From Oscillibacter ruminantium GH1 (lineage in GTDB: Bacteria > Bacillota > Clostridia > Oscillospirales > Oscillospiraceae), in contig NZ_DF158897.1 of the NCBI RefSeq assembly GCF_000307265.1, forward strand, positions 500,729 to 564,728: a DNA stretch of 64,000 nucleotides, in the 5' to 3' direction. The position numbers and the translations under genes are program-made. This document shows positions 8,263 through 15,855 of the stretch, one piece after another; position 1 is the first letter of the stretch; each line of letters begins with the position of its first letter. Under the pieces are notes generated by a model. That model made no database searches. It saw nothing but the letters and a program-made list of their open reading frames with translations, and was not told where the DNA came from.

Positions 8263-10413
8263 TTACTGAATAGGCTCGCCCTTGGCCTTCTTGGCCTCGA
8301 TTTCCTTCATGGCGTCCTTGTGAGAGAGGTTCCAGCGGCCCTTCTCGTCGATCTCCATAAACTTGACCCACATCATGTCGCCCACCTTGCAGGCGTCCTC
8401 CACCTTTTCAATGCGGTGGTCAGCCAGCTTGGAGATGTGGCACAGGCCGTCCTTGCCGGGAGCGATCTCGATGAACACACCAAAGGTCATCATCCGCACC
8501 ACGCGGCCGTAGTACAGCTTGCCAACCTCGGGAACGAAGACGATATCGTCGATGCACTTCTTGGCGGCGTCGCAGGCGGTGGAGTCGGCGGCGGCAATGA
8601 AGATGGAACCGTCGTCATTGATGTCCACCTTCGCGCCGGTGTCGGCCACGATCTTCTGGATGACGGAGCCGCCCTTGCCGATGACCTCACGGATGCGGTC
8701 GGGATCAATGTGCATGGTAATCATTTTGGGGGCGTAACGAGATACTTCCTTGCGAGGCTCGGCAATACAGGGAATCATCACCTGATCGAGAATCTCGCAC
8801 CGGGCGTCAAAGGTGATGTCCAGCGCGTTGCGGATAATCTCCATGGTCAGTCCGTCGTTCTTCAGGTCCATCTGAATGGCGGTGATGCCCTTCTTGGTGC
8901 CAGCCACCTTGAAGTCCATTTCGCCGTGGAAATCCTCCACGCCCTGAATGTCGATAAAGGTGGTAAAGCCGCCGTTGTCGTCCTGAATCAGGCCGCAGGA
9001 GATGCCTGCCACGGGAGCCTTGATGGGTACGCCCGCGTCCATCAGAGCCAGCGTGGAGCCGCAGATGGAACCCTGAGAGGTGGAACCGTTGGAGGAAACG
9101 ACCTCGGAAACAACACGGATGGCATAGGGGAAGTCCTCCACAGAGGGCAGCACGGGGACCAGCGCGCGCTCAGCCAGCGCACCGTGGCCGATCTCGCGGC
9201 GGCCGGGGCTACGGGCGGACTTTGCTTCGCCGACGGAGTAGCCGGGGAAGTTGTAGTGGTGCATATAGCGCTTTTCCGTCTCCTCCCAGATGGTGTCCAG
9301 CTTCTGGTTGGCGGAGAGGGTGTCCAGCGTGCAGGCGGAGAGCACCTGCGTTTGACCGCGAGTGAACAGGCCGGAGCCGTGAACCCGGGGCAGAAGGCCA
9401 ACCTCCGCGCCCAGAGGACGGATCTCGTTCTTCTGCCGGCCGTCCACACGGTGGCCTTCCAGCAGCCATGCCTTGACAATCTTCTTCTGGAACTTATAGG
9501 TGATCTCGTCCAGATACTGATCCATGGTGGGATATTCTTCGAGGAACAGCTCGTGCCACTTCTCGATCAGAGCGTTCCAGCGAGTCTCGCGAACGTTCTT
9601 GTCGTCGGTGTCCATGGCGGCCTTGGCGTCGTCCATAGTGGCGGCAACGATCTTGTCGAACAGTTCCTGATTGAAATCAGCGTGGGGATATTCAAACTTG
9701 GCCTTGCCGATTTCAGAAACCATCTGGTTAATCAAGGCGATCTGCTTCTGGTTTTCCTCGTGGGCGGCCTTAATGGCGGCGTACATGGTGTCGTTGTCCA
9801 CCTCGTTGGCGCCGGCTTCAATCATGACGACCTTCTCGCCGGTGGAAACCACGGTTACGTCCAGATCGCTGACCTTGCCCTGCTCGTTGTTGGGGTTGAA
9901 GACCAGCTTGCCGTCCACAAGGCCCACCTTCAGAGCGGCCACGGGGCCGTTCCAAGGAATGTCGGAAATAGCCAGAGCCGCGGAGGTGCCGATCAGAGCC
10001 GCGATCTCGGGGGAGCAGTCCCGGTCCATGCTCATGACGGTGGCCATGATGGAAACGTCGTTGCGGAAGTCGTGGGGGAACAGGGGGCGGATGGGCCGGT
10101 CAATAACGCGGCTGGTAAGAACGCCCTTTTCGCCGGGACGACCCTCGCGGCGGTTGAAGGAGCCGGGGATGCGGCCCACGGAGTACATCTTCTCCTCAAA
10201 GTCCACGCTCAGGGGGAAAAAGTCGATCCCGTCCCGGGGACGGGCGGAGGCGGTGGCGCACACCAGCACTCGGGTGTCGCCGTAGCCCACCATGACGGCG
10301 GCGTTGGCCAGCTCTGCCAGCTTGCCCACTTCCAGAGTCAGGGGGCGGCCGGCCAGATCCATCTCATACTTGTGATAGCCGGGGTATTGACGCTTGGTAA
10401 TAATGGTTGACAT
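8263..10413 (-). CDS. pnp: Polyribonucleotide nucleotidyltransferase (PNPase)
   Basis: This 716-residue phosphorolytic 3'-5' exoribonuclease acts in mRNA decay. Two RNase PH domains contain RREGRPGEKGVLTSRVIDRP, DGRQKNEIRP and FMGEKE-like family blocks. The KH domain (about residue 560) has the GKGG loop, and the S1 domain (about 630-700) has RVVRMMTFGVFIEI. Length agrees with the family. The start ATG at 10413 has AAGGAG seven bases upstream; the frame is open further upstream, but that stretch is the intergenic repeat and looks noncoding. It follows rpsO, the gene order also found in E. coli, which suggests shared transcription and leader processing. Confidence 0.97.
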   Translation of the reverse strand: MSTIITKRQYPGYHKYEMDLAGRPLTLEVGKLAELANAAVMVGYGDTRVLVCATASARPRDGIDFFPLSVDFEEKMYSVGRIPGSFNRREGRPGEKGVLTSRVIDRPIRPLFPHDFRNDVSIMATVMSMDRDCSPEIAALIGTSAALAISDIPWNGPVAALKVGLVDGKLVFNPNNEQGKVSDLDVTVVSTGEKVVMIEAGANEVDNDTMYAAIKAAHEENQKQIALINQMVSEIGKAKFEYPHADFNQELFDKIVAATMDDAKAAMDTDDKNVRETRWNALIEKWHELFLEEYPTMDQYLDEITYKFQKKIVKAWLLEGHRVDGRQKNEIRPLGAEVGLLPRVHGSGLFTRGQTQVLSACTLDTLSANQKLDTIWEETEKRYMHHYNFPGYSVGEAKSARSPGRREIGHGALAERALVPVLPSVEDFPYAIRVVSEVVSSNGSTSQGSICGSTLALMDAGVPIKAPVAGISCGLIQDDNGGFTTFIDIQGVEDFHGEMDFKVAGTKKGITAIQMDLKNDGLTMEIIRNALDITFDARCEILDQVMIPCIAEPRKEVSRYAPKMITMHIDPDRIREVIGKGGSVIQKIVADTGAKVDINDDGSIFIAAADSTACDAAKKCIDDIVFVPEVGKLYYGRVVRMMTFGVFIEIAPGKDGLCHISKLADHRIEKVEDACKVGDMMWVKFMEIDEKGRWNLSHKDAMKEIEAKKAKGEPIQ

Positions 10414-10436
10414 GTTGCTTCTCCTTAAAATTAATT

Positions 10437-10617
10437 TTTTCGCGCAATGCCAGCCATTTAGCACTTGAAAAAAAGCCTTCGTATTTCGTCTCCCGTAAAA
10501 AAACGCCGAGCGGCGAAATGAGCGAGCTTTGACCTTTAGGCCGAAGCGAGGGATACGGAGCATACGAGGACGCGAAGACGCTTTTTCAACTGCTAAAGGC
10601 ATTTTGGCGGCGCGAAA
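10437..10617. repeat. Long imperfect inverted repeat between rpsO and pnp
   Basis: The left arm (about 10437-10500) contains TTTAGCACTTGAAAAAAAGC, then CTTCG and CTCCCGTA. The right arm (about 10548-10617), read in reverse complement, contains TTTAGCAGTTGAAAAAGC, then CTTCG and CTCCGTA. Even the outer TTTCGCGC and ATGCC blocks recur in both arms. The centre holds a small CGCCG/CGGCG hairpin followed by seven T on the minus strand. It could be a MITE-like insertion or a folded pnp leader that is cut by RNase III, as at this site in E. coli. Confidence 0.7.
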
Positions 10618-10629
10618 TCTATGAAAAGG

Positions 10630-10656
10630 GGGCGGCGCGGAAAACCCACGCCGCCC
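10630..10656 (-). terminator. Hairpin after rpsO, possible attenuator
   Basis: GGGCGGCG and CGCCGCCC form an eight-bp stem followed on the minus strand by CCCCTTTT. The U-tract is weak, so read-through into pnp is likely. Confidence 0.55.
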
Positions 10657-10666
10657 ACGGTTCATC

Positions 10667-10933
10667 TTACTTACGGATACCCAGCTTGGCAATCAGGGCG
10701 CGATAGCGCTCGATGTCCTTCTTCTGCAGGTAGTCCAGCAGGTTCCGCCGCTTACCGACCATCATGATCAGACCCCGGTTGGAGTGCTTGTCCTGAGGGT
10801 TGGCCTTCATGTGCTGAGTGAGGGTGTTGATCCGCTCAGTCAGAATGGCGATCTGAACCTCGGGAGAGCCGGTGTCCGTTGCATGAGTGCGGTTTGCGTC
10901 GATGATAGCGGTCTTTTCTTCTTTGCGCAGCAT
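10667..10933 (-). CDS. rpsO: 30S ribosomal protein S15
   Basis: This 88-residue protein binds the central domain of 16S rRNA. It has the conserved core [33 protein letters not shown] and [12 protein letters not shown]. Length equals that of the family when the ATG at 10933 is used; AGGTGG stands eight bases upstream. An in-frame GTG twelve bases earlier would overlap this ribosome binding site and is rejected. It is the first gene of the rpsO-pnp unit and has its own promoter. Confidence 0.97.
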
Positions 10934-11035
10934 AATTGTATCCACCTTTTAAAAAAATTACCCACAGGACTGCGCGCCGGGCAGGTGTCGCCACGGGACG
11001 AAGCGCTGGGGCGCCGCATATTTGCGTGCTTAGTC

Positions 11036-15568: not shown

Positions 15569-15584
15569 GTACAATAGAATATCC

Positions 15585-15855
15585 GGCGTGGAAAAGGACG
15601 AGTAAGACCCCACCCCCTGCACAGAGAGCGGCCCGTTTTGGTGGAAGGGCAGTCAGCGAAGGGGTTTGAAAATCACCTTGGAGCCTCCTGCTGAAAGACG
15701 ACGCGAGTAAGCGTGGACGATTGACCTTCGTTACCGGGTCGGCCTGTGGATGCAGGCTGTGAGTGGCTTTTCCTGCGAGGGGAAGGCAACGAGAGTGGTA
15801 CCGCAGAGTGTTTTTTCGCACCCTGTCTCTTTGGAGACAGGGTGCTTTCTTTTTG
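15585..15855 (+). promoter_or_regulatory. T-box riboswitch controlling ileS
   Basis: The leader has the T-box sequence GAGTGGTACCGC (about 15793-15804), which pairs with the tRNA acceptor end in the antiterminator. The terminator stem GCACCCTGTCTC/GAGACAGGGTGC (15818-15845) and T-tract follow. The stem I landmarks GACGAGTAAGA, AGAGAGCGG and GGTGGAAGGG are present. The likely specifier is ATC at 15672-15674 within GAAAATCACC, fitting isoleucine. Uncharged tRNA-Ile would favour the antiterminator and allow ileS expression. The specifier codon assignment is by pattern and not by full folding. Confidence 0.93.

What the first reader, a model, noticed from the sequence alone, without database searches (positions are those of the whole stretch)
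10437..10617. 180-bp imperfect palindrome between rpsO and pnp
The two arms of about 60-70 bases share several blocks in inverted order, including TTTAGCA-TTGAAAAA-GC and CTTCG. A small T-ending hairpin stands in the middle. The location matches the site of the RNase III-cut pnp leader in E. coli, through which PNPase controls its own mRNA. It may alternatively be a mobile palindromic repeat that has been adopted.
Basis: partly seen in the sequence, partly recalled or inferred. Interest (0 to 1): 0.55.

Follow-up and report, generated by a model that had tools for sequence, protein, structure and literature searches.

The report
Conserved pnp leader hairpin with inserted repeat
The palindrome is a real RNA hairpin that gut bacteria of the Oscillibacter group keep just ahead of the gene for an RNA-degrading enzyme, probably so the enzyme can limit its own production, and here a mobile repeat has landed in the loop of that hairpin without breaking its stem.

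Summary
The palindrome is real. On the minus strand, that of rpsO and pnp, window:10437-10617 folds to -76 kcal/mol (z -6.6). It is two things at once.

(1) The outer stem (UUUAGCAGUUGAAAA / UUUUCAAGUGCUAAA) is a conserved pnp-leader RNA. It was present in 80 of 80 related pnp loci and the window, with strong covariation. A covariance model hit the leader in 39 of 64 order genomes sampled by protein and in ten genomes of other orders of the class. G-U pairs outnumber A-C mismatches on the mRNA strand. No Rfam family reaches its threshold.

(2) The ~90-nt loop holds part of a dispersed ~110-nt palindromic repeat found in 67 of 86 genus genomes. Relatives lack it there or carry it in the opposite orientation.

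RNase III/PNPase autocontrol, as in E. coli, is the best mechanism but is inferred from position, stem length (at least 23 pairs, 81 of 81) and an RNase III gene. I had no RNA-end data. I rate it a new variant of a known kind.

The parts
10667..10945 (-). rpsO (ribosomal protein S15), upstream gene
   Evidence: ORF; TIGR00952 E 1.5e-37
10630..10656 (-). G+C-rich hairpin with T-rich tail just after rpsO, terminator-like
   Evidence: terminator scan, 12 pairs, 10 G-C
10437..10617 (-). whole pnp-leader hairpin including the loop insert
   Evidence: fold -76 kcal/mol, z -6.57. Model R1: with default filters the full-length hit (10431-10627, E 3.9e-9) is on the plus strand and the minus strand gives only a partial one (E 0.62); with filters off the core 10457-10597 scores 31.7 bits on the minus and 23.3 on the plus strand
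10573..10597 (-). 5' arm of the conserved core (TTTAGCAGTTGAAAAAGCGTCTTCG read on the minus strand)
   Evidence: inverted repeat I1; core found in 80 of 80 relatives
10457..10481 (-). 3' arm of the conserved core (CGAAGGCTTTTTTTCAAGTGCTAAA read on the minus strand)
   Evidence: inverted repeat I1
10598..10617 (-). outer lower stem, 5' side
   Evidence: mostly paired with 10437-10456 in the predicted fold
10437..10456 (-). outer lower stem, 3' side
   Evidence: fold
10482..10572 (-). apical loop with the inserted repeat; 10508-10572 aligns with positions 1-65 of the 112-nt repeat consensus, the rest does not
   Evidence: 83% identity, E 5.7e-15; matches at 75-80% identity in 6 other places of the own genome
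10497..10515 (-). small T-ending hairpin inside the loop (CGCCGCTCGGCGTTTTTTT)
   Evidence: sequence; not reported by the terminator scan
10421..10426 (-). Shine-Dalgarno-like AAGGAG of pnp, about 11 nt after the base of the hairpin
   Evidence: sequence; SD-like motif in the last 20 nt of 81 of 81 leaders by a loose pattern
8263..10413 (-). pnp (polynucleotide phosphorylase), downstream gene
   Evidence: TIGR03591 E 1.3e-270

Best explanation
The stem is a conserved cis-acting leader RNA of pnp, made on the rpsO-pnp mRNA. Most likely RNase III cuts its long helix in read-through or leader transcripts, and PNPase then attacks the freed 3' end of the duplex, so that excess PNPase shortens the life or the translation of its own mRNA (autocontrol as in E. 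coli). The inner loop of the window's copy holds part of a mobile palindromic repeat that entered the apical loop, where it leaves the helix intact and is therefore tolerated. Shown here: the hairpin, its conservation, covariation, mRNA-strand bias and position before pnp, and that the loop holds a dispersed repeat. Inferred: RNase III cleavage, PNPase feedback, and tolerance as the reason why inserts survive.
For: Hairpin in 80 of 80 protein-selected pnp loci plus the window (arm patterns written after reading the sequences), and in 81 of 81 minimum-energy folds with at least 23 pairs, median 35, interior loops of up to 3 nt a side allowed. Covariation in 66 leaders: score 0.343 against 0.151 shuffled, 0 of 500, slid versions 0.056-0.131. 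In 41 more distant leaders: 0.456 against 0.148, 0 of 500 (pairs with double changes 11 against 8.4, 5 of 500; these had been found with the model, so paired cells are biased upwards). mRNA-strand bias: G-U 192 against A-C 34, and 68 against 15, with the one conserved C-A column left out; 195 to 72 and 74 to 28 with it. All 30 fetched loci of the best order-level hits lie between rpsO and pnp. In an order sample chosen by PNPase, 39 of 64 have it 38-262 nt after rpsO. Distance to the start codon 42-61 nt in 80 of 81. RNase III gene present. Precedents: RNase III stem-loop between rpsO and pnp in E. coli and Streptomyces (PMC5872136, passages); staggered cuts in the pnp 5' leader of Propionibacterium acnes (PMC3848588, passages). 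Loop repeat.
Against: No transcript or RNA-end data were available, so no step of the mechanism is observed. The core helix is conserved in sequence, including a G-G mismatch (23 of 66 in A1; 31 of 41 in A2). To my knowledge RNase III does not need that, so another protein may read it. 25 of 64 sampled order genomes gave no model hit; five of these show a similar core by eye, some have another hairpin or a very short gap, and in four rpsO was not found in the stretch. With default filters the model's full-length hit in the window is on the plus strand; only the unfiltered run favours the mRNA strand. In the phylum sample 3 of 398 hit at E <= 1e-4, all in the order, and one of them (G053) is a non-pnp site. 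Whole-genome runs also miss true leaders (G000 itself; G039, G128 and G147 gave none, yet have local hits L270, L247, L230), so absence elsewhere is not shown.
Confidence: 0.62

Rival explanations
1. The hairpin is a sequence-specific operator in the pnp mRNA, bound directly by a protein (PNPase itself through its KH/S1 domains, S15, or another RNA-binding protein) that blocks translation or decay; RNase III is not needed.
For: Core letters, not only pairs, are conserved across the order: UUUAGCAGUU[G/A]AA..UU[C/U]AAGUGCUAAA with a G-G mismatch in 31 of 41 distant leaders. It sits 42-61 nt before the start codon in 80 of 81.
Against: Type B leaders (33 of 66 in A1) differ from type A at four core positions together, so the letters can change if pairing is kept. 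The Shine-Dalgarno is outside the stem. No binding data.
Confidence: 0.2
2. The hairpin is only a barrier: it protects the 3' end of rpsO mRNA, or the 5' end of pnp mRNA, against exonucleases, without feedback.
For: Long stable helix in 81 of 81, in the window right behind a terminator-like hairpin.
Against: A mere barrier should not need conserved core letters or a near-fixed distance to pnp; in the window the rpsO end already has its own hairpin.
Confidence: 0.12
3. The whole palindrome is a mobile palindromic repeat (REP/MITE-like) that happens to lie here.
For: The inner part matches 6 other places of the own genome and a consensus is found in 67 of 86 genus genomes, beside unrelated genes such as aroB, fabG/fabF and cardiolipin synthase.
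Against: The paired stem arms were found at no other place of the own genome, and recur before pnp in relatives with short loops and no repeat.
Confidence: 0.03
4. It is a DNA operator of the CIRCE/HrcA kind, because TTAGCA..TGCTAA recalls the CIRCE half-sites (resemblance and consensus recalled from memory).
For: Similarity of the arms to TTAGCACTC/GAGTGCTAA.
Against: The genome has two perfect CIRCE sites elsewhere and the pnp site is not among matches with up to 3 mismatches. Spacing is variable and far over 9 nt; type B arms lack the resemblance; G-U bias points to RNA pairing.
Confidence: 0.02

Closest known systems
E. coli rpsO-pnp leader (RNase III processing, PNPase autocontrol)
   Same: Same gene order, a second stem-loop after the rpsO terminator and before pnp that RNase III processes (PMC5872136 passages; details of autocontrol from the P. 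acnes paper's passage, and recalled; the primary paper was not held)
   Different: No sequence relation tested or claimed; here the core letters are conserved; cleavage not shown
Streptomyces coelicolor rpsO-pnp intergenic hairpin
   Same: Stem-loop just upstream of pnp cleaved by RNase III (PMC5872136 passages)
   Different: Different phylum; no cleavage data here
Actino-pnp RNA motif (RF01688)
   Same: Conserved structured RNA named for pnp and marked cis-regulatory, Actinomycetales (PMC2864571, table passage)
   Different: Not among cmscan matches up to E 10 for one relative's leader; a family search of 6 genomes found nothing, but its controls did not ring either
REP/MITE-type dispersed palindromic repeats
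   Same: The loop insert belongs to a multi-copy repeat beside unrelated genes whose consensus folds
   Different: Not compared with named repeat families; no transposase sought

Membership tests
RNase III-dependent autoregulatory pnp leader (E. coli type) | Long stem-loop between rpsO and pnp on the transcribed strand | tested here: met
RNase III-dependent autoregulatory pnp leader (E. coli type) | RNase III encoded in the genome | tested here: met
   TIGR02191, E 7e-76
RNase III-dependent autoregulatory pnp leader (E. coli type) | Staggered RNase III cuts in the stem | not testable with these tools
   no RNA-end data
RNase III-dependent autoregulatory pnp leader (E. coli type) | pnp expression falls with PNPase activity through the leader | not testable with these tools
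   no expression data
Actino-pnp (RF01688) | Match to the family covariance model | tested here: not met
   absent from cmscan matches up to E 10 for L084; no gathering match in the window at this place or in 12 relatives; uninformative
CIRCE operator | TTAGCACTC-N9-GAGTGCTAA (consensus recalled) | tested here: not met
   2 perfect sites elsewhere, none at pnp within 3 mismatches
Dispersed palindromic repeat (loop insert) | Multiple diverged copies beside unrelated genes | tested here: met
Dispersed palindromic repeat (loop insert) | Target-site duplication or transposase partner | not tested
   no boundary or transposase analysis was made
Known Rfam family | Match over a gathering score | tested here: not met
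   window; its only match is a T-box elsewhere; 12 relatives

The most novel reading that the evidence does not exclude
An order-wide pnp leader RNA of Clostridia, absent from Rfam, whose mismatched core helix is read letter by letter by a dedicated protein and whose apical loop is a standing landing site for mobile palindromic repeats. Repeats there can flip by inversion between the arms, so the regulatory hairpin has domesticated mobile DNA as its loop.
Probability: 0.25. Interest if true: 0.65.

Novelty: new variant of a known kind. Interest (0 to 1): 0.5.

Why it matters
PNPase autocontrol is described in E. coli, with RNase III processing of the same gap in Streptomyces and matching cuts in Propionibacterium. 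A conserved, covarying pnp leader through Oscillospiraceae and some other Clostridia would make the same logic testable in common gut anaerobes and could become an RNA family. It is also a clear natural case of a mobile repeat in a regulatory RNA at the one place where the structure tolerates it, with empty, sense and antisense states in related species.

Tried and rejected
Whole palindrome as one mobile repeat: rejected for the stem. CIRCE/HrcA operator: rejected. Known Rfam family: none at gathering score here; at a permissive threshold only sub-threshold matches, mostly eukaryotic miRNA. Actino-pnp family search of 6 genomes was uninformative because the controls did not ring. Phage records: no match.

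Inversion of the loop against independent insertion: left open, inversion favoured. The window's loop aligns with the flipped L041 loop (107.5; 71.0 with 12 nt trimmed off each end) far better than unflipped (36; 2.0), null about 0, sd 7-8. For the inversion: the outer G-G mismatch stands on the mRNA strand as in relatives, while the inner GCC../..GAC signature stands on the plus strand (alignments), as if all inside the arms had flipped. Against: the repeat's own end has similar GCGTC letters, and only one sister, L042, is known, with a decayed antisense copy (36.0 same against 18.0 flipped with L041, null 0.8, sd 5.7).

A first tree from 690 nt was replaced by one from 2100 nt of pnp (65 of 81 rows, 16 left out as too short, L073 among them; SH-aLRT only, no bootstrap). 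On it the insert needs 3 changes and leader types A/B need 13, at least 10 by well-supported branches (shuffled mean 21.8); a pnp tree may itself be affected by recombination. The 66-row alignment A1 leaves out 15 of 81 leaders with loops over 47 nt, the window included.

Literature: seven of my eight searches bore on whether this leader is in print (one search was on the repeat). I saw no Clostridia pnp-leader motif in the listings or passages, but not every listed paper was opened, subscription papers are mostly not held and no supplements were read. In PMC8040213 none of the six terms searched occurs in the main text. PMC7247131 passages deal with S15 and other r-protein leaders; PMC3328962 and PMC3997798 passages were seen as background.

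Full report
What is there. The interval 10437-10617 folds to -76 kcal/mol, z -6.57, with 0 of 200 dinucleotide shuffles as good. The main inverted repeat is 10457-10481 / 10573-10597, 25 nt, 84% complementary, 91 nt apart. A separate terminator-like hairpin follows rpsO at 10656-10630.

Copies in the genome. The full 196 nt occur once in the genome, but the inner part matches six other places at 75-80% identity. In 60 genomes searched, the own one included, 17 had a match at E <= 0.01, most of the listed rows to the inner part. Two relatives (L024, L027) have the outer stem at the same place, before pnp, with a short loop and no repeat. This split the object into a stem and a loop insert.

The stem is a conserved pnp leader. 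A search with the N-terminal 230 residues of PNPase kept the best 80 of 415 loci, of Oscillibacter, Dysosmobacter and unnamed Oscillospiraceae and Clostridia. All 80 and the window have both arms before pnp (the arm patterns were written after reading the sequences). The end of rpsO was found by pattern within the 420 nt before pnp in 76 of 80; in L042, L089 and L091 it is visible by eye with other last residues, in L051 it is not in that stretch. The loop from TTG to CAA is 34-67 nt in 73 of 81 and 85-150 nt in 8 of 81. All 81 minimum-energy folds hold the core, with 23-45 pairs, median 35, interior loops of up to 3 nt a side allowed. The 3' end of the core is 42-61 nt from the start codon in 80 of 81 (223 in L093), and all 81 have a Shine-Dalgarno-like motif in the last 20 nt by a loose pattern.

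Covariation. On 66 short-loop leaders (15 of 81 left out), 91.5% of cells pair against 80.0 shuffled. Twenty of 30 pairs show changes on both sides, and the covariation score is 0.343 against 0.151, 0 of 500 shuffles; slid structures give 0.056-0.131. Sequences are related, so shuffles overstate this. RNAalifold on the same alignment predicts the core helix but not the outer one. Two forms of the core exist: type A (UUUAGCAGUUGAAAA / UUUUCAAGUGCUAAA and variants) and type B (CUUUUUGUGUUUGAAA / UUUCAAAUACGAAAAG), which differ at four core positions together (33 type B rows of 66). On a 2100-nt pnp tree of 65 rows the type needs 13 changes, at least 10 by well-supported branches, so this is not one inherited change; whole-leader exchange by recombination may explain it. 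A C-A mismatch at one inner pair is kept in 37 of 66. On the mRNA strand G-U pairs exceed A-C mismatches 192 to 34 with that column left out and 195 to 72 with it (68 to 15 and 74 to 28 in the distant set), as expected if the mRNA-strand RNA is what pairs.

Range. A covariance model R1 finds the window at E 3.9e-9. With default filters that full-length hit is on the plus strand and the minus strand gives only a partial one at E 0.62; with filters off the core scores 31.7 bits on the minus and 23.3 on the plus strand. In 295 genomes of the order it hits 101 at E <= 0.1, of which 83 are at E <= 1e-5 by my count of the rows; where one genome has two listed hits they are the two strands of one palindrome (the match list is cut). 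The 30 loci fetched all lie between rpsO and pnp. In 291 genomes of the class there are 22 hits; of 19 newly fetched loci, 11 are rpsO-pnp leaders (10 of them outside the order, in three families) and 8 weak ones (E 1.3e-5 or worse) are not. In 398 genomes of the phylum three order members hit at E <= 1e-4, one of them (G053) at a non-pnp site. These whole-genome runs score few candidates and miss true leaders: G000 itself, and G039, G128 and G147, whose leaders are found locally (L270, L247, L230). The counts are therefore lower bounds and absence is not shown. Because model hits favour paired sequences, I also sampled the order by PNPase: 65 of 69 genomes had it. Of the 64 besides the own genome, 39 have an R1 hit at E <= 0.01, all starting 38-262 nt after rpsO; 25 do not, of which five (L268, L269, L273, L280, L284) show a similar core by eye and four (L233, L245, L246, L283) had no rpsO in the stretch. 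In 41 distant leaders the core UUUAGCAGUU[G/A]AA / UU[C/U]AAGUGCUAAA is nearly fixed, a G-G mismatch is kept in 31 of 41, and a G-C pair becomes A-U in 12.

The loop insert. Thirty copies align to a consensus of about 110 nt. A search with it hits 67 of 86 genus genomes, the own one included, at E <= 0.001, with up to 13 matches per genome although only 10 candidates per genome were scored; the own genome has 13. Copies in the own genome lie beside aroB, cardiolipin synthase, fabG and fabF (over their curated cut-offs) and beside genes like prephenate dehydrogenase and TtcA (under them); in four of the six loci a mechanical ORF overlaps the copy, so I do not claim that all are intergenic. The window's loop matches consensus positions 1-65 in sense (83%, E 5.7e-15); L041 and L045 match 1-106 and L073 1-37, all antisense. 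L042 and L065 hold decayed stretches that align with L041 in the same orientation, clearly for L042 (36.0 against a null of 0.8, sd 5.7), weakly for L065 (15.5 against -5.5, sd 5.8). Window and L042 are sisters (SH-aLRT 100, 88% identity). A shared insertion followed by inversion of the loop is the simplest story, and the inner-stem signature fits it, but independent insertions are not excluded.

Mechanism. The rpsO-pnp gap of E. coli and Streptomyces holds a stem-loop cut by RNase III (passages of PMC5872136), and staggered cuts were mapped in the pnp leader of Propionibacterium acnes, whose authors consider the autocontrol conserved (passages of PMC3848588). The present hairpin has the place, strand, length and partner enzyme (RNase III gene) for the same role. 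I think it most likely that it is the RNase III entry point for PNPase autocontrol (about 0.62), with direct protein recognition as the main rival because the core letters are more conserved than RNase III should need. The insert sits in the apical loop, beyond the helix, and the fold keeps 26 pairs in the window's copy, which would explain why it is tolerated. The small T-ending hairpin in the loop might add some termination, but the scan does not list it.

Novelty. No Rfam family matches at the gathering score here, and Actino-pnp, the nearest known idea (PMC2864571), is not among matches up to E 10 for the one leader so tested. The literature searches listed under Tried and rejected showed no such motif in Clostridia within the open-access papers held. 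I call it a new variant of a known kind: a pnp leader RNA of its own sequence family, with the added oddity of mobile repeats in the loop.

Noticed in passing
window 15580-15833 (+): T-box leader (RF00230, E 4.7e-21), ahead of a long ORF from 15901 that reads like isoleucyl-tRNA synthetase (name recalled from its letters).
   Followed up: no
L043, L044, L099: first ~130 nt after the rpsO stop: The same repeat family sits directly behind the rpsO stop codon in these relatives (E 2e-14, 4e-17, 1e-4); L113 looks alike by eye but was not matched. So this gap has received the repeat at a second site.
   Followed up: partly
L051 and L052, before pnp: The 5' half of the leader hairpin is present twice, 195-196 nt apart, as if the leader had been partly duplicated.
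   Followed up: partly
L069 and L075, leader loops of 96 and 129 nt: Type B leaders with long loops that do not align clearly with the window's loop in either orientation: other sequences also enter the loop.
   Followed up: partly
L019 and L037, left flank of the repeat: In two genomes (G024, G028) the repeat follows a very similar flank that reads like the start of a translational GTPase gene (name recalled), so one insertion site seems shared between species.
   Followed up: partly
L002/L003 (own genome C1 286227-286401): Two tandem repeat units 122 nt apart between aroB and a prephenate dehydrogenase-like gene.
   Followed up: no
L251, L259, L278, L286, rpsO-pnp gap: Order members without a model hit have another hairpin here (about GCAGTTAAGAAAG / CTTTCTTAACTGC; L251 looser), possibly a replacement leader.
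   Followed up: no
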